Shown here piece after piece: positions 3,517 to 50,171 of a DNA stretch of 64,000 nucleotides. Position 1 is the stretch's first letter; each line of letters begins with the position of its first letter. The notes beneath the pieces are model-generated. The model was given only the letters and a program-made list of their open reading frames with translations, was not told the origin of the DNA and did not search any database. Position numbers and translations under genes: made by a program. The stretch spans positions 248,001 through 312,000 of the forward strand of contig JALDAJ010000001.1 in the NCBI GenBank assembly GCA_022729235.1. The letters run 5' to 3'. The stretch comes from Candidatus Nanohalarchaeota archaeon. Lineage in GTDB: Archaea > Nanohalarchaeota > Nanosalinia > Nanosalinales > Nanosalinaceae.

Positions 3517-4824
3517 ATGAAATCTAGAAACCTCAGAGCCCCTCTTATTTTATTCTTAACCTTATTCCTGGCAGCAGGAGCTCTGGCTCTTGGAGAGGCA
3601 AGTACCTCCAGTTTCGGGAGCGACATGGAAGACAGAGACGTAGATGACGATCTCAGGTCAGGATTCGGAGATGACATCTACGATGAAGGACAGTCTGAAG
3701 AGTCAACCACGTCCAGCTCTGAGTCCACAGATTCGTCTACCCAAAGCACAGATTCAGAAAATGAAGAGACCACAGGAATCTCCTCTGAAGACTTTGGTGG
3801 AGACATAGATGACGAAGGAACATCAAGAGACGGATTCGGAGATGATATAGACGACGAGACAGGTGAGGAAGAAACCGAAGAAACAGAGGATACAGAAGTT
3901 ACGTCTGAAGACTTTGGTGAAGATATAGATGACGAAGGAACATCAAGAGACGGATTCGGAGACGACACAGATGATGAAGGATCACCAAGAGACGGATTCG
4001 GAGACGACACAGATGATGAAGGATCACCAAGAGACGGATTCGGAGACGACGTAGATGACGAATCGCCTGGCGATGGACCGGAAGATGAACCAGCTGACGA
4101 AGAGCAGGATGAAACAGAAGAAAACGAGGAAGAATCCGAGTCAGCTGCTGACGCTATAGACCCAGAACTCTCCTCTTCAGTCTGGCCCGGAACAGTGAAC
4201 ATAGGAGAGACTGTAACCGTTACAGGCAACGTCGTGGGAGTGGAAGATGAAGAGCTGACCGTCATGACCAACACAGGGATAGTCTCAACAGAACAAGTAG
4301 ATGGACAGCAGACCTTCCAGACCACGTTCACTCCTGAAGAGACAGGTACACACGAAGTAGAAGTTGTGGTAGGAGAACTCAGCGAGACCCACGATATCGA
4401 AGTACAGTCTACAGTAGATATCGAATCAATCACCTGGCCGAGTTCAGTTGAAGAAGGAGAGAGCTTCCAGGTATGCGCCGAAGTCTCTTCCGAGGAAGAC
4501 CCCGAGGTCAGACTGCTAAAGGATGGAGCACAGGTCGAGGTTAAGACAGGAGACGGCACGAAATGCTTCACGACACAGCTCCACCAGGTAGGCGACCACC
4601 AGTTAACGGTCGAAGCAGAAGTTGACGGGGACAGCGACACGGAGACAACAACAGTAAATGCCTACACAGTAGCGACCGGTACAGAACCTCAGAACAACCA
4701 GGGTATGATAGGAAGCTTCATGGACTCCATGTCCGCGAACCTCGGACTTGTGATTGCCGCTATACTGGCAGTCGCACTCGCAGGGTATGTCTACAGCAGT
4801 AGCAGAAGCCGGAGCAAAACCTGA
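3517..4824 (+). CDS. Repeat-rich acidic surface protein with C-terminal membrane anchor
   Basis: This 435-residue protein starts 17 bp after the preceding gene. It has an N-terminal signal peptide (about residues 8-25), then tandem acidic repeats of the type DGFGDD(T/I)DDEG (about 45-190). Two beta-rich Ig-like segments follow (about 205-295 and 300-385), and then one transmembrane helix near 412-428 with an Arg/Lys-rich tail SSRSRSKT inside. The order signal, stalk, Ig-like domains, anchor is typical of archaeal surface proteins. It may be part of the cell-surface layer or an adhesin; function unknown. Confidence 0.75.
   Translation: MKSRNLRAPLILFLTLFLAAGALALGEASTSSFGSDMEDRDVDDDLRSGFGDDIYDEGQSEESTTSSSESTDSSTQSTDSENEETTGISSEDFGGDIDDEGTSRDGFGDDIDDETGEEETEETEDTEVTSEDFGEDIDDEGTSRDGFGDDTDDEGSPRDGFGDDTDDEGSPRDGFGDDVDDESPGDGPEDEPADEEQDETEENEEESESAADAIDPELSSSVWPGTVNIGETVTVTGNVVGVEDEELTVMTNTGIVSTEQVDGQQTFQTTFTPEETGTHEVEVVVGELSETHDIEVQSTVDIESITWPSSVEEGESFQVCAEVSSEEDPEVRLLKDGAQVEVKTGDGTKCFTTQLHQVGDHQLTVEAEVDGDSDTETTTVNAYTVATGTEPQNNQGMIGSFMDSMSANLGLVIAAILAVALAGYVYSSSRSRSKT
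3952..4050 (+). repeat. 42-bp in-frame tandem repeat
   Basis: Two exact 42-bp units (3952-3993 and 3994-4035) and 15 bases of a third encode repeated GFGDDTDDEGSPRD units in the surface protein. Diverged units occur upstream (from about 3790). The identity of the two units at DNA level points to recent expansion. There are no unique spacers, so this is not a CRISPR. Confidence 0.85.
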
Positions 4825-4889
4825 CAACCCCCCATTTCCTTTTCATTTTCTCCAGACAGGTACAAAGAAGGTGAAACAGGTGACCGAAG

Positions 4890-5561
4890 ATGAGAGAATA
4901 CCCAGAAAACGACAGTCAAATCCAGGAAGAAAACCCGGAGATAAACCGGAGAGACTACCTGAACGACTACGTAAAGCCTGCAGGAAAGGCTGCTCTGACA
5001 GGGAGTCTTGCAGGATGTTTCCACAGACCGACCGCTCCCAGACTGGAGGAGCGTGTCGAAGAAGTCGAAACCAGTATACGCCGGAACTTCCCCATAGGAG
5101 ACTACAACTTCAACTTTGAATGGAATACCACCGAACTAGATCTTTACCACATAGAGGAGACCAACGTACAGGACGCCAGTAACTTCGGGCTTTACGCAGA
5201 AGTAGACCTTGCCGATGACTCAGATGACCTATTTGGATGGCTGGAAGGAGCCTCCAGGGAAAGACAGGAACAGTTTTTCGAAATCCTCTCAGAACCTATG
5301 TACGACCTGAAGAACGAGATATACAGCGAGCTAAGAGACGCTACAGACCCCCAGAGACCGTTACACCGCAACCGTATAACCGAATACGGCGTACGGATAA
5401 ACGGAAGAAAATGCTCATATATCGAAGACTTCGTGCAGGGAGAAGACATGGACGAAACACTCAGGAGCGCAAGCCACTACAGAGACTACATAGGTACAGG
5501 AGAGGAAGTCCATGTAGAACTTGACAGAGGATGGCCATTCGGACTAGGATGGGTCTGCTAG
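4890..5561 (+). CDS. Putative Tat lipoprotein of unknown function
   Basis: This is a 223-residue protein. Residues 19-43 combine a twin-arginine motif (N-R-R-D-Y-L) with a hydrophobic stretch ending in the lipobox-like LAGC, Cys43. That is the layout of Tat-exported, lipid-anchored proteins common in haloarchaea. The mature part is acidic with no family I recognise. It follows the repeat-rich surface protein on the same strand and probably belongs to the same surface cluster. Confidence 0.65.
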   Translation: MREYPENDSQIQEENPEINRRDYLNDYVKPAGKAALTGSLAGCFHRPTAPRLEERVEEVETSIRRNFPIGDYNFNFEWNTTELDLYHIEETNVQDASNFGLYAEVDLADDSDDLFGWLEGASRERQEQFFEILSEPMYDLKNEIYSELRDATDPQRPLHRNRITEYGVRINGRKCSYIEDFVQGEDMDETLRSASHYRDYIGTGEEVHVELDRGWPFGLGWVC

Positions 5562-45967: not shown

Positions 45968-46450
45968 CTATTCATCCTCATCCGGATGCCTGTAGAACTT
46001 CACCGCCTCCTCGAACCTTTCCGTTCGAGTCACTTTACTCAAAAATTTCGCGAATCTTTCATGTCTGGGCACAACCACACTGAAAGCCGCAAACAGGCGG
46101 GCAAATCTACCGCCACGTGCGATAAGGTGAAGTATCTCCTGCGCCAGCTCACCGATTCTGATAGCGCCCTCAAGTAGCCGGAAAATCCAGAAGAACGGCA
46201 TAACCGCTATTATCTCAAGCCACTCTCTCCTGAGGAAGCCTCCCCAGCTCGCCGCGCGCCTGAACTTGAAAGACAGGTCACCAACGAAGATAGAAAGCAC
46301 AACCAGGTCGGCATAGAGGAAATAACGCTCGTACTCATACTTGAAACCAGTGAAGAATATATCCGCGATAACGATAACTAGCAACACCAAAAGAGCGGGT
46401 ACAATCATCTTGTCGAAAAACCATTCAAGCCTCGCCCAGAAACGCCTCAT
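45968..46450 (-). CDS. Voltage-sensor-like membrane protein
   Basis: This 160-residue protein has about four transmembrane segments. The fourth region LEGAIRIGELAQEILHLIARGGRFARLF places basic residues at intervals like an S4 voltage sensor, and WLEIIAVMPFFWIFRLLE resembles the S3-S4 region of ion-transporter proteins. There is no pore domain. It may be an isolated sensor domain; function uncertain. Confidence 0.6.
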   Translation of the reverse strand: MRRFWARLEWFFDKMIVPALLVLLVIVIADIFFTGFKYEYERYFLYADLVVLSIFVGDLSFKFRRAASWGGFLRREWLEIIAVMPFFWIFRLLEGAIRIGELAQEILHLIARGGRFARLFAAFSVVVPRHERFAKFLSKVTRTERFEEAVKFYRHPDEDE

Positions 46451-46561: not shown

Positions 46562-47203
46562 ATGATTGTAGTAGGGGTAGGAGGTGGCTCGGGAAGCGGG
46601 AAGACCTACATGTGCTCCCGGATAGAGGAGAAACTACCCGAGAAAACACTTATCTTCTCCATGGACCGGTACTACCGGCCGTTCAAGGACAAGGACGAGT
46701 TCGAGAGGAAACAGGTCAACTTCGACCTCCCAAAAGCGTTGGACTGGGAGCTGATGAAAGAACACCTCGGGAAACTGCAGGAACAGGAGAAAGTGATGAT
46801 GCCGGAGTACTCGTTCGAGAAGAACACCCGCGTAGGACACACCGAGGTCGAACCTCAGGAGATTGTTCTTGTAGAGGGGATACACGCCCTGCACGATGAA
46901 GAACTCAACCAGTTGATGGACCTGAAAGTCTTCCTCGACCCCGACCCGGACGTGAGAGCCGTGAGGAGGATGAAGCGCGACATCGCTGAAAGGAACCGCA
47001 ACCCGGAGTTCGCCGCCCGGCAGTACCTGGAGAAGACGAAACAGGCGCACCACGAACACGTCGAACCCACCAAACAGCGGGCAGACCTCGTACTCGACAC
47101 AGACCAGGCCAACCGGTTCATAGAAGCCGTCACACAAAAACTCCGGGAAGACGAAGCCTCGGACGCGGAAGACCTACACCGGTTCGCGAAAGAGAAAGTG
47201 TAG
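46562..47203 (+). CDS. Uridine kinase/phosphoribulokinase-family P-loop kinase
   Basis: This 213-residue protein has Walker A GGSGSGKT near residue 7-15, FSMDRYYRP, and NFDLPKALDW, the motif set of uridine kinases. The later EGIHALHDEELNQLMDLKVFLD follows the same order. It likely phosphorylates uridine/cytidine or a related sugar nucleoside for pyrimidine salvage. It is monocistronic with an AT-rich upstream region. Confidence 0.88.
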   Translation: MIVVGVGGGSGSGKTYMCSRIEEKLPEKTLIFSMDRYYRPFKDKDEFERKQVNFDLPKALDWELMKEHLGKLQEQEKVMMPEYSFEKNTRVGHTEVEPQEIVLVEGIHALHDEELNQLMDLKVFLDPDPDVRAVRRMKRDIAERNRNPEFAARQYLEKTKQAHHEHVEPTKQRADLVLDTDQANRFIEAVTQKLREDEASDAEDLHRFAKEKV

Positions 47204-47253: not shown

Positions 47254-47724
47254 TTAAGTTCTCCGGTTGTTACGCAGTTGCTGTTGCTGAGACATATTCC
47301 TATCCTTCCCTGAACTATCCCTGTATCCACCGGCCATGAGTACAGCGCCTGCTGACATCAGTACGAATCCCAGTCCGCCGACAAGCAGAGCTCCGCTCAT
47401 ATCACCTTCTATAATACCTATAGGCATCAGAATACCGAAGAACAACCATCCGACCTTGACAGGTACTATACCGGACATCACCTGGAGCGCGTTTAGAGCA
47501 GATCCGGTCTCAGCCTTCACTCTCTGGTAACTCCTGTAGGTCTGCCTGTAGTTCAGGATAGAGCTAAGCACATCCCTGCTCCAGAAAACAAGAGCTGCAA
47601 AAGCACCTAGATAGACCAACCAGTACAGCGACTCCAGCCTGAGAACCGCTATAGGCAACGGCAAGAGAGCCAAAACATTCGGGCCATACCTTTTCAGATC
47701 CCTTCTAAAATCCGTCTTACCCAT
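47254..47724 (-). CDS. Multi-pass membrane protein of unknown function
   Basis: This 156-residue protein has four predicted transmembrane stretches (about 13-28, 31-48, 89-105, 112-131) and a Gln-rich C-terminus MSQQQQLRNNRRT. No family recognised. Confidence 0.6.
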   Translation of the reverse strand: MGKTDFRRDLKRYGPNVLALLPLPIAVLRLESLYWLVYLGAFAALVFWSRDVLSSILNYRQTYRSYQRVKAETGSALNALQVMSGIVPVKVGWLFFGILMPIGIIEGDMSGALLVGGLGFVLMSAGAVLMAGGYRDSSGKDRNMSQQQQLRNNRRT

Positions 47725-47995
47725 ACATACCTCTTAACAAACCCCGAACTTAAATTTACACCTCCCCGGAGAAGAGACAAGAGAATCCAAAGACTATAGA
47801 AAGACTCCTACGCCCCCTCAGAACACATAACCAACCATTCAGTGCCCCGATAAGAAACAGGGTATCTCGAAAGGGCTAGCAACCTAGACGTACTTATATC
47901 CCATCGGAAACACGGTTGAGGGCTCTGAACCAATGGTTCAAAGTCCCAGTTGAGCACTGAACCCCGCCAAACTATCGTATCCTGAGCACACCTGG
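47725..47995. other. Intergenic region with a palindromic segment
   Basis: This gap of about 270 bp lies between two reverse-strand genes. It has a TATA-like ACTTATATCC near 47891 and, about 35 bp on, a palindrome GAACCAATGGTTC (47928-47940) inside GGCTCT...GTCCC, followed by two CTGA tetramers. It may encode a small RNA, but no known family fits. Confidence 0.25.
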
Positions 47996-48982
47996 TTAGA
48001 GAACTTGCTTGTTATCTTCAGCAGATCGGTAGAGGCTCCGGATGTAGTGCATAGCTGCTAGAGCGTATTCGACTGCGACTTCCGGCTGAACATCCCACCT
48101 TTCCAGTGTCTTTGGGTTATAACCGTGACCGCCGCTCGGATTTCGCATTCCCCCGAGATAGTTGCCACCGTGAAGATGTCTCTTCATCGTCCAATTTTCT
48201 TTGTGTAGTTCTGTCGCGAGTTGACCTATACCTGAGGCGCTGCTATAGTTTCCGCTTGTACCATAGTCGTTTCCTATATCTCTTTGAAAATCTTCTACAG
48301 CTCTACCCGCTGCGGAAATAGAATTTCTTGGTGAGCTGTTGTGTTCAACTAAAGCAGTTGCTAGTTCATCTACATACTTGTCGTTCATATAAGCTACAAC
48401 ATCTTCACCAATCTGGTCTTCGATGAAAATACGAGCAGTAGCTTCGGATTTAAGAGCATCTTCCAACTCCTGGATGTACTCTTCGGATATTGGGCTATCC
48501 TTGGCAGAAACGGCGATGGTCCCGTTATCATTCTCAAGGAGATTCGAATAGGTTCCAAGCTTAATGAACTGCTTCTTTATCTTCTCTTCACTGATTCCTA
48601 AATCATACAGGACATCAACTTGTACCGCAGCACGATCTGGTTCATATCCCTTGGAAAGAAATGAGAGGAAGGCGATGAATGGTTTGTACCTTTGAAGATA
48701 CTTGTTTAGAATTACAAACCGCTGATCCGGAGACAGTTTCCTGACTTCCTCGGCTATATCAGAGTTTACTTCGAACCCGCTATCAACTTCTTGCATAAGG
48801 TTTAGTTCTTCCCCTAAGTGTATGACTGCCTTAGTATAGCGAGTTCCACAGTCGATGAACCGAGAAATTTCATCTCTTTCGAGTGGTCTTGGAGTCTGCG
48901 ATAGTCCAAATACAGCTTCCATCAATACCTCAGGGTTCACTACATTGGCCCGCAGAGATTGATGTACCTCCGACATGTTCAC
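47996..48982 (-). CDS. Candidate abortive-infection (Abi-C/TIGR02391-like) protein
   Basis: This is a 328-residue protein. The last about 55 residues read YLGGMRNPSGGHGYNP...VAVEYALAAMHYIRSLY. The RN...G.HG motif followed by a helix is the hallmark of Abi-C/AbiJ-type C-terminal domains used in phage defence and in TIGR02391 proteins. The N-terminal part looks helical with winged-helix features. GTG at 48982 overlaps the stop of the upstream partner (GTGA); ATG 48976 is an alternative. Confidence 0.6.
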   Translation of the reverse strand: MNMSEVHQSLRANVVNPEVLMEAVFGLSQTPRPLERDEISRFIDCGTRYTKAVIHLGEELNLMQEVDSGFEVNSDIAEEVRKLSPDQRFVILNKYLQRYKPFIAFLSFLSKGYEPDRAAVQVDVLYDLGISEEKIKKQFIKLGTYSNLLENDNGTIAVSAKDSPISEEYIQELEDALKSEATARIFIEDQIGEDVVAYMNDKYVDELATALVEHNSSPRNSISAAGRAVEDFQRDIGNDYGTSGNYSSASGIGQLATELHKENWTMKRHLHGGNYLGGMRNPSGGHGYNPKTLERWDVQPEVAVEYALAAMHYIRSLYRSAEDNKQVL

Positions 48983-49695
48983 TCAGGCAGATGTTCTTCC
49001 AGTATCTCTAGCTTCTCCTTGAGCTCGGTTTTGTCTATGTCAGCGAGATCAACTTTAACGTTGATTTCGACATTTTCTCTCGTTTCGGACGAGGTTCTGC
49101 TAGGAACGTCAGGCGTTTTATCTCCCTCAGAACCTGTCGTCGGCTGTCCTTGTTGATCCAAGCTGTCGTTCTCTTCCTCTTCCGTCTCGTCTAGGGATAG
49201 ACTTAGTTCCAGTTTTCCGCCCTCACCGGCCTCAATCACACCAAGTTCCTCGAATATCCCGACAAAACGCTCGACCTTCTCAATATCCTCTTCGAAGTAT
49301 TCTTGCTTGCCAGCGACCTTTTTGGCTATCTCTGATCGAGTGTAATCCGAGTTCTTGTTAAGTAGATATACCACTTCGTTAAACAAGTCGTTCTCTTCCT
49401 GAAGCTGTTTGACTAGTTTTTTCTTTGCACGCCTCTCCATTTCCTCATTTGATGCGTTTTCGAGCGAAACTAGGAATTTCGGAGGAGAGTAGTACCCTGC
49501 TTTCTCTCTATGGATCAGTCCGATTTTCCAGAGCGCCTTGTAACAGGTGGATGCGTTCTGGGTGTTAATATCGTCGGCCGCGTCTTTGTAGTATACGGCT
49601 TCCTCACCCTCATAGGTAAAGCGCTCAATGAGATTTTCAAGTGCTTTCTTATGGAGTTCTGGAGAGAATCTCCCCGGCAAATCATCTCGTTCCAT
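48979..49695 (-). CDS. Partner of the candidate Abi protein, DUF5343-like winged-helix protein
   Basis: This 238-residue protein has an N-terminal segment with two winged-helix-like stretches (NTQNASTCYKALWKIGLIHRE; SDYTRSEIAKKVAGKQEYFEE), reminiscent of DUF5343, then a Ser/Thr-rich linker and a short coiled coil. It is the first gene of a two-gene operon with overlapping stop/start. DUF5343 proteins occur beside TIGR02391-type Abi proteins, which supports a defence role. Confidence 0.5.
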   Translation of the reverse strand: MERDDLPGRFSPELHKKALENLIERFTYEGEEAVYYKDAADDINTQNASTCYKALWKIGLIHREKAGYYSPPKFLVSLENASNEEMERRAKKKLVKQLQEENDLFNEVVYLLNKNSDYTRSEIAKKVAGKQEYFEEDIEKVERFVGIFEELGVIEAGEGGKLELSLSLDETEEEENDSLDQQGQPTTGSEGDKTPDVPSRTSSETRENVEINVKVDLADIDKTELKEKLEILEEHLPE

Positions 49696-50037
49696 AAGTC
49701 ACATATTTAATAAAAAACTTTTTAAACTATTCTGTTATTCGCCGATTTTTAGTCAAATTGCAGAGATATTTTGTCACGAGGAGAAAATCCGGCAGGAGTT
49801 TCCGAGGGTATTACACCATAATACACAGCAAGCTTTAGATGAAGGAAATGATGACTAATAACTAACCAATATAAGCACAGTGTTCGCCTATCAAATACGA
49901 ATCAGCAGGCTGAGAAAGATATGATGTTGTATAATAGTACTATTTAAATGCTGAACACTAGATTTCTCTTGAAAATTCAAACGAAGCGAGGAGAACCGAG
50001 AAGAGCTTGAAAGAAAGGCTCTGAATGGACGAGAAGG
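49696..50037. other. Intergenic region between the candidate Abi operon and tRNA-Arg
   Basis: This AT-rich gap of about 340 bp has TATTTAAA near 49937. At 50000-50028 GAGAAGAGC and GGCTCT resemble a degraded hairpin B on the plus strand. A plus-strand frame ending at 49858 gives a short, Cys/Phe-rich peptide with no supported start. No gene is called here. Confidence 0.35.
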
Positions 50038-50171
50038 CGCCCCCTCAGGGATTTGAACCCTGGATCTGCACCTATTTGCTTCGAAGATCAGAGATCTTCT
50101 CGGTCCCCGTTCTCCCGTTGGGAGAACTTGAGGCTCCGCAAGGTGCCGTCTTTCCACTAGACCAAGGGGGC
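50038..50171 (-). tRNA. tRNA-Arg (anticodon GCG) with a 62-nt intron carrying the A-B module
   Basis: Minus strand: acceptor GCCCCCT (50171-50165) pairs with AGGGGGC (50045-50039), discriminator G. Anticodon stem GCACC/GGTGC; loop TT-GCG-G, intron 50074-50135 at 37/38, then A38. TTGC pairs with GCAA near the intron end. The intron holds hairpin A (50105-50133) and hairpin B (50083-50099) with a CCGA spacer. The D-arm GGTCTAGTGG is more like glycine tRNAs, so identity rests on the anticodon. Confidence 0.82.

What the first reader, a model, noticed from the sequence alone, without database searches (positions are those of the whole stretch)
47996..49695. Two-gene candidate defence operon next to a tRNA
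An upstream DUF5343-like double winged-helix protein and a downstream protein ending in an Abi-C/TIGR02391-like RN..G.HG domain overlap by GTGA. They sit beside an intron-bearing tRNA-Arg and an AT-rich gap, a typical place for acquired genes. Known Abi proteins kill or arrest the infected cell; this pairing in such a small-genome lineage would be notable.
Basis: partly seen in the sequence, partly recalled or inferred. Interest (0 to 1): 0.6.

Follow-up and report, generated by a model that had tools for sequence, protein, structure and literature searches.

The report
Mobile two-gene RNase defence pair, archaea
Beside a tRNA gene in a tiny salt-loving archaeon sits a recently arrived gene pair, a DNA-binding-type protein and a predicted RNA-cutting enzyme; related pairs recur together in haloarchaea and in a Lokiarchaeia-like lineage, once with a different killing domain, so it looks like an uncatalogued, swappable-effector virus-defence or toxin system.

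Summary
Gene A (49695-48979, minus, 238 aa) overlaps gene B (48982-47996, minus, 328 aa) by GTGA, beside an intron-bearing tRNA-Arg(GCG). No Pfam, NCBIfam or PADLOC model recognises either protein. Homologues found de novo show a real family: all 12 scorable B homologues (9 haloarchaeal, 3 Lokiarchaeia-like, counting one effector-swapped member) have an A-type gene next door, in several orientations.

B's C-terminal domain is homologous to authentic Abi_C domains (profile-profile 92%, E 6e-7; shuffled controls >=0.24). It keeps the HEPN RNase signature (Rx4-5H in 13/13, Ex3R). B's N-terminus resembles A's winged-helix front end. In one Lokiarchaeia-like genome the same operon carries a TIR-type defence effector instead of HEPN, beside an A 44% identical to an A paired with a HEPN-type B.

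The pair is foreign: absent from 27 relatives, nested in a haloarchaeal clade, bounded by an 11-bp copy of the tRNA 3' end. Three relatives have near-empty sites; a fourth has an integrase at this tRNA.

Best reading: a horizontally acquired two-component effector module, B a HEPN RNase controlled by A. HEPN homology and pairing are shown; RNase activity, A-B binding and antiviral role are inferred.

The parts
48979..49695 (-). Gene A: 238-aa acidic protein (pI 4.6), predicted two winged-helix domains, disordered acidic linker and a C-terminal strand-helix tail; predicted sensor or inhibitor partner
   Evidence: ORF; homology to the Haladaptatus partner gene, 33% over 147 aa plus the C-terminal tail; secondary structure from a low-confidence model; family alignment A7
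49201..49677 (-). A residues 7-165: double winged-helix region, weakly DUF5343-like
48982..49080 (-). A residues 206-238: C-terminal tail (ENVEINVKVDLADIDKTELKEKLEILEEHLPE), the best conserved part across most A proteins; candidate partner-binding element
   Evidence: alignment A7; BLAST tail matches
47996..48982 (-). Gene B: 328-aa protein, winged-helix front end plus C-terminal HEPN/Abi_C domain; predicted RNase effector
48767..48934 (-). B residues 17-72: winged helix 1 (three helices and a hairpin), similar to the A2-type partner front end
   Evidence: (low confidence)
48503..48730 (-). B residues 85-160: central region with invariant P101-F102; the region kept in the TIR-effector homologue
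48014..48430 (-). B residues 185-323: HEPN/Abi_C effector domain
   Evidence: hhalign against Clostridial Abi_C: prob 92%, E 6e-7
48281..48295 (-). B E230-x3-R234 (EDFQR), HEPN Ex3[KR] motif; both residues invariant in alignment A6
   Evidence: motif definition in PMC3710099
48122..48145 (-). B R280-N-P-S-G-G-H286-G, HEPN Rx4-6H catalytic motif; R and H present in 13/13 B homologues
48979..48982 (-). GTGA overlap of the A stop and the B start
49718..49726 (-). TATA-like TTTAAAAAG at -31 to -23 from the A start codon, compatible with a leaderless operon transcript
   Evidence: sequence printed; inference from archaeal promoter rules
50038..50048 (.). attL candidate: CGCCCCCTCAG, the 3' end of tRNA-Arg
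47811..47821 (.). attR candidate: exact copy of the tRNA 3' end; only these two copies in 64 kb
   Evidence: 0.01 expected; 1/1000 block shuffles near the 3' end
50036..50171 (-). tRNA-Arg(GCG) with a 62-nt intron, the integration site

Best explanation
A and B form a horizontally acquired two-component effector module, most likely an abortive-infection-type defence system. B is a HEPN endoribonuclease: a winged-helix front end, a central adaptor and a C-terminal Abi_C/HEPN domain with the Rx5H and Ex3R active-site residues. A is its multi-winged-helix partner: variable N-terminal winged helices act as sensor or regulator, and the conserved C-terminal strand-helix tail, on a flexible acidic linker, docks on B and holds it inactive. 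When the trigger appears (viral DNA, a host-takeover signal or loss of A), B cleaves cellular RNA and growth stops before the virus spreads. The effector end can be swapped: a Lokiarchaeia-like homologue has a TIR-type domain in place of HEPN. The pair entered this nanohaloarchaeon-like genome at tRNA-Arg(GCG), from or alongside a haloarchaeal lineage. Shown: the pair, its conservation, HEPN/Abi_C homology, the effector swap, foreign origin. Inferred: RNase activity, A-B binding and inhibition, trigger, antiviral role.
For: Pairing: all 13 B loci that can be scored have an A-type gene adjacent: window, Haladaptatus, Halobaculum, seven further Halobacteria genomes (A interrupted or only partly readable in two), and Lokiarchaeia-like G119, G772 and G786; orientation varies (co-directional, convergent, divergent), so the link is functional and not only inherited gene order. 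B C-terminus vs Abi_C: prob 92%, E 6e-7, column-shuffled controls E >=0.24. Rx4-5H in 13/13, Ex3R invariant in A6, both defining HEPN RNase motifs (PMC3710099). Effector swap: L100 B keeps the central region (E 3e-14) but ends in a PADLOC TIR effector (E 8e-15), with an A 44% identical to the A of a HEPN-type operon. B front end resembles the A2-type front end (E 2e-5). Context: SF2 helicase beside two members, CRISPR-like array with cas1/cas4-like genes in Halobaculum, SLFN_AlbA_2 and weak OLD-type TOPRIM neighbours in G119. Mobility.
Against: No experiment. Structure models of A and B have low confidence (pLDDT 49) and the PDB fold search was uninformative, so the HEPN fold rests on profile homology and motifs. 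PADLOC has no model for the pair. No homologue was found in phage records or viral contigs. Clostridial Abi_C proteins show no evident A-type partner in their roughly 3.2-kb loci, so function cannot be carried over from them. The helicase and CRISPR links occur in two and one loci only. The effector swap rests on one locus. The A types are divergent (some hhalign comparisons not significant) and the Loki A tails align poorly with the haloarchaeal tails.
Confidence: 0.55

Rival explanations
1. Toxin-antitoxin addiction or stabilisation module of a mobile element: B is an RNase toxin, A the antitoxin and autorepressor; it persists because losing it is costly, without protecting against viruses.
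For: Two overlapping genes with the regulator-type gene first, a small acidic A with a winged-helix part and a tail, a 2.2-kb element at a tRNA with nothing else readable in it; a member on a 331-kb plasmid.
Against: The effector swap to a TIR-type domain, the winged-helix front end shared by A and B, A proteins of up to 506 aa with tandem winged-helix blocks and helicase/CRISPR/AlbA_2 neighbours fit an immune effector better; convergent and divergent arrangements are unusual for autoregulated toxin-antitoxin operons.
Confidence: 0.25
2. Non-toxic regulator pair: B's HEPN domain binds RNA without cutting and A/B act as transcription or RNA regulators of an element or host process.
For: Winged helices in both proteins; some HEPN proteins such as MtlR are non-catalytic (PMC3710099).
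Against: The catalytic R and H are kept in 13/13 diverse homologues while the rest diverges to about 20% identity; patchy distribution, 10/394 Halobacteria, 4/83 genomes of the class of G119, 1/28 in the phylum.
Confidence: 0.12
3. Decaying passenger: the pair is a remnant of a larger integrative element whose integrase and partner genes are gone, and no longer functions here.
For: No integrase within the 2.2 kb; the attR copy is only 11 bp; a related locus has an in-frame stop in A (L044) and another keeps only a B fragment (L046).
Against: Both window ORFs are intact, overlap exactly, and keep the active-site residues and the conserved tails.
Confidence: 0.08

Closest known systems
Abi_C (Pfam PF14355, 'Abortive infection C-terminus') of the HEPN superfamily
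   Same: B residues 185-323 align collinearly with authentic Abi_C proteins including the upstream conserved helix and RN..HG (prob 92%, E 6e-7)
   Different: B and its relatives do not reach the Pfam cut-off (best member 20.2 of 24 bits); Rx5H or Rx4H instead of the Rx6H of the 12 Clostridial proteins; B has a winged-helix front end and an A partner that the Clostridial loci appear to lack
HEPN toxins of Abi, RM-associated and toxin-antitoxin systems (Anantharaman et al. 2013, PMC3710099)
   Same: Rx4-6H and Ex3[KR] motifs, C-terminal position after variable N-terminal domains, defence-type neighbourhoods, pairing with a regulator
   Different: In the parts of that survey read here, no two-gene winged-helix plus winged-helix-HEPN unit was described
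TIR-type defence effectors (PADLOC PDLC00733 'Effector', TIR)
   Same: The Lokiarchaeia-like homologue L100 has this domain in the HEPN position (E 8e-15)
   Different: The window protein itself has HEPN; no cyclase or STAND partner is seen, the partner being the winged-helix A protein
DUF5343 (Pfam PF17278)
   Same: Consensus of window-type A aligns over model positions 6-129 of 140
   Different: E 0.015, 16 bits against a cut-off of 27; no member scores on its own

Membership tests
HEPN superfamily RNase (B) | Rx4-6H motif, polar residue after R | tested here: met
   R-x5-H (x4 in two members) in 13/13; N, T or S after R in 11/13, I in the two x4 members
HEPN superfamily RNase (B) | Second acidic residue as Ex3[KR] in helix 2 | tested here: met
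   E230DFQR234, both residues invariant in alignment A6, in predicted helix 218-240 (low-confidence model)
HEPN superfamily RNase (B) | Four-helix fold with the motif at the end of helix 3 | tested here: inconclusive
   AlphaFold2 with 2 sequences: helical C-terminus but mean pLDDT about 50; no PDB match with E below 0.001
HEPN superfamily RNase (B) | Metal-independent endoribonuclease activity | not testable with these tools
   needs the purified protein
Abi_C PF14355 (B) | Score above the curated cut-off of 24 bits | tested here: not met
   Window B: no match; best relative 20.2 bits, E 6e-4; so B is related to Abi_C but not filed as a PF14355 member
Abi_C PF14355 (B) | Profile homology over the whole domain | tested here: met
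   hhalign prob 92%, E 6e-7 over 138 columns; shuffled controls E >=0.24
TIGR02391/Ymh PF09509 (B) | Profile match | tested here: not met
   no match in Pfam or NCBIfam at E<=1
DUF5343 PF17278 (A) | Score above the curated cut-off of 27 bits | tested here: not met
   none for single proteins; consensus 16.0 bits, E 0.015
Known anti-phage defence system (PADLOC) | Match to the proteins of any catalogued system | tested here: not met
   window A and B: none; among A/B homologues only the TIR end of L100 gives a strong hit
tRNA-integrated mobile element | Direct repeat of the tRNA 3' end bounding the insert, and a relative without it | tested here: met
   11-bp repeat; membrane-protein gene 41-46 bp after the tRNA in three relatives against 3.6 kb here
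tRNA-integrated mobile element | Own integrase | tested here: not met
   none between the repeats; a tyrosine integrase lies at the same tRNA in relative G007

The most novel reading that the evidence does not exclude
A previously uncatalogued archaeal immune family, shared by haloarchaea, a nanohaloarchaeal-type symbiont and Lokiarchaeia-like archaea: a multi-winged-helix sensor (A) and a matching winged-helix adaptor (B) whose C-terminal killing domain is interchangeable (HEPN RNase or TIR-type), passed between haloarchaeal hosts and their tiny symbionts at a tRNA-Arg integration site.
Probability: 0.45. Interest if true: 0.75.

Novelty: new variant of a known kind. Interest (0 to 1): 0.58.

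Why it matters
Archaeal defence is thinly catalogued, and Pfam, NCBIfam and PADLOC all miss this pair. If it is a defence system, it adds a two-component architecture with swappable effectors found in haloarchaea and Lokiarchaeia-like genomes, and shows a small, probably episymbiotic archaeon carrying immunity of its hosts' lineage at a tRNA site. Haloarchaeal copies (Halobaculum, Haladaptatus) make it testable in Haloferax volcanii.

Tried and rejected
Pfam, NCBIfam and PADLOC on the single window proteins: nothing. Protein-to-contig scans of viral and genome collections with automatic patterns: nothing; a motif pattern for MRNPSGGHG found Halobaculum plus one chance Clostridial hit. AlphaFold2 with the permitted shallow alignments gave pLDDT 49 for both proteins and an uninformative PDB search. 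Family PF14355 in Halobacteria gave 0 of 195 although B homologues are there, so the Pfam model misses this branch. Idea that B is housekeeping: rejected, present in 1 of 28 genomes of the phylum. Idea of a structured RNA in 47870-47995: no Rfam match and no folding excess. Viral homologues for a co-occurrence analysis: none found.

Full report
OBSERVATION. B carries RNPSGGHG at residues 280-287. The neighbour is tRNA-Arg(GCG), about 50036-50171 (-), with a 62-nt intron; the gap between it and A is 36% GC against 48.8% for the window. A TATA-like TTTAAAAAG lies 31 bp before the A start codon (sequence; inference).

HOMOLOGUES. Single-sequence scans of A and B find nothing in Pfam, NCBIfam or PADLOC. 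tblastn found one plasmid homologue of B, in Haladaptatus sp. QDMS2 (52%, E 3e-109), with an A homologue convergent to it (33%, E 4e-14). A motif pattern found Halobaculum gomorrense. A profile search of 394 Halobacteria genomes then found B in 10, a profile search of 345 archaeal genomes found G119, and 83 genomes of the class of G119, which I take to be Lokiarchaeia from genome size and composition, gave 4. Only the window genome has B among 28 genomes of its phylum.

PAIRING. Every B locus that can be scored has an A-type gene beside it: window, G347, G673, G684, G700 and G119 with A then B on one strand, touching or nearly so; G772 likewise; Halobaculum with helicase, A, B and a convergent second A; Haladaptatus with helicase, B and a convergent 501-aa A; G410 with A and B divergent; G532 with an A interrupted by one in-frame stop; G648 with a partly readable A near a contig end; and the effector-swapped G786. 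G743 cannot be scored because the contig ends upstream of B, and G621 has only a B fragment. The A proteins are divergent, but A2-A3, A2-A4 and A1-A2 comparisons give E 5e-7, 2.5e-4 and 3e-4, and most share a C-terminal strand-helix tail.

WHAT B IS. A profile of B (residues 166-328) matches 12 genuine Abi_C proteins from Clostridia (found with PF14355) at prob 92%, E 6e-7 over 138 columns; column-shuffled controls against the full-length profile gave E 0.24 or worse. The HEPN motifs defined by Anantharaman et al. 2013 (PMC3710099) are present: Rx4-5H in 13/13 B proteins and Ex3R (E230-R234) invariant in alignment A6. B's N-terminal half resembles the A2-type winged-helix front end (prob 77%, E 2e-5; controls E 0.18 or worse); this similarity is seen with the pooled profile and weakens for subfamily profiles. 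Structure models were of low confidence and do not decide the fold.

EFFECTOR SWAP. In G786 the B homologue keeps the central region (E 3e-14) but its C-terminus matches the PADLOC TIR effector (E 8e-15) and weakly Nuc_deoxyrib_tr. Its overlapping upstream A is 44% identical over 381 aa to the A of G772, whose B has the HEPN motif. The same sensor-adaptor unit is therefore paired with two effector types, a hallmark of immune systems (inference). This rests on one swapped locus.

FOREIGN ORIGIN. The window B lies inside the clade of haloarchaeal class-I B proteins (support 99/97, midpoint root). The pair is bounded by CGCCCCCTCAG, the tRNA 3' end, at 50038-50048 and 47811-47821, the only two copies in 64 kb (expected 0.01); 1 of 1000 block shuffles places an 11-mer from the tRNA's last bases there, 31 of 1000 any 11-mer of its last 50 bp. 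The order FEN1, EF-1beta, tRNA-Arg(GCG) is conserved in relatives; in three of them the membrane-protein gene at window 45968-46450 starts 41-46 bp after the tRNA, whereas here 3.6 kb intervenes. The pair accounts for the stretch up to the repeat; the two genes beyond it (47254-47724 and 46562-47203) are also absent from the relatives' loci and may be a separate insertion. In G007 a phage-type integrase (PF00589, E 2e-11) starts 79 bp after the same tRNA.

MECHANISM. Shown: pairing, homology, motifs, swap, mobility. Inferred: A holds B inactive by its tail and senses a trigger with its winged helices; B cuts RNA and stops the cell. Addiction toxin-antitoxin is the main rival, because the anatomy of the window pair alone cannot separate the two; the effector swap and the defence-type neighbours (SLFN_AlbA_2 and a sub-threshold OLD-type TOPRIM in G119; a CRISPR-like array with cas1/cas4-like genes in Halobaculum, named from sequence reading) favour defence.

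NOVELTY. HEPN effectors of Abi type are known; this two-gene architecture was found in none of the libraries searched, and literature searches for PF14355, DUF5343 and HEPN with archaeal defence returned nothing describing it as far as titles, abstracts and the passages read show. The library holds open-licence papers only, so absence there is weak evidence.

Noticed in passing
L100:2678-3568 (-) and 3565-4938 (-): Lokiarchaeia-like operon in which the B homologue ends in a TIR-type domain in place of HEPN, with an A partner 44% identical to that of a HEPN-type operon.
   Followed up: yes
L078:5640-6929 (+): Phage-type tyrosine integrase (PF00589) 79 bp downstream of tRNA-Arg(GCG) in relative G007, so this tRNA is an integration hotspot in the phylum.
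   Followed up: partly
window 46562-47203 (+): Uridine-kinase-like gene with GC3 0.74 against a window mean of 0.55, absent from the same synteny block in relatives; possibly another acquired gene.
   Followed up: no
window 47254-47724 (-): 156-aa predicted membrane protein beyond the attR repeat with no Pfam match and no counterpart in the relatives' loci.
   Followed up: no
window 47870-47995: Non-coding stretch after B with a hairpin (minus strand) that may be a 3' end signal; no Rfam match and no folding excess.
   Followed up: partly
L027:137-679 and L002:6033-7925: XPB-like SF2 helicase (67% identical between the two) directly upstream of the module in Halobaculum and Haladaptatus; the Haladaptatus one is PADLOC PbeA-like (E 8e-33).
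   Followed up: partly
L044:8322-9191 and L046 about 9168: Related loci with an in-frame stop in A and with only a B fragment, suggesting turnover of the module.
   Followed up: no
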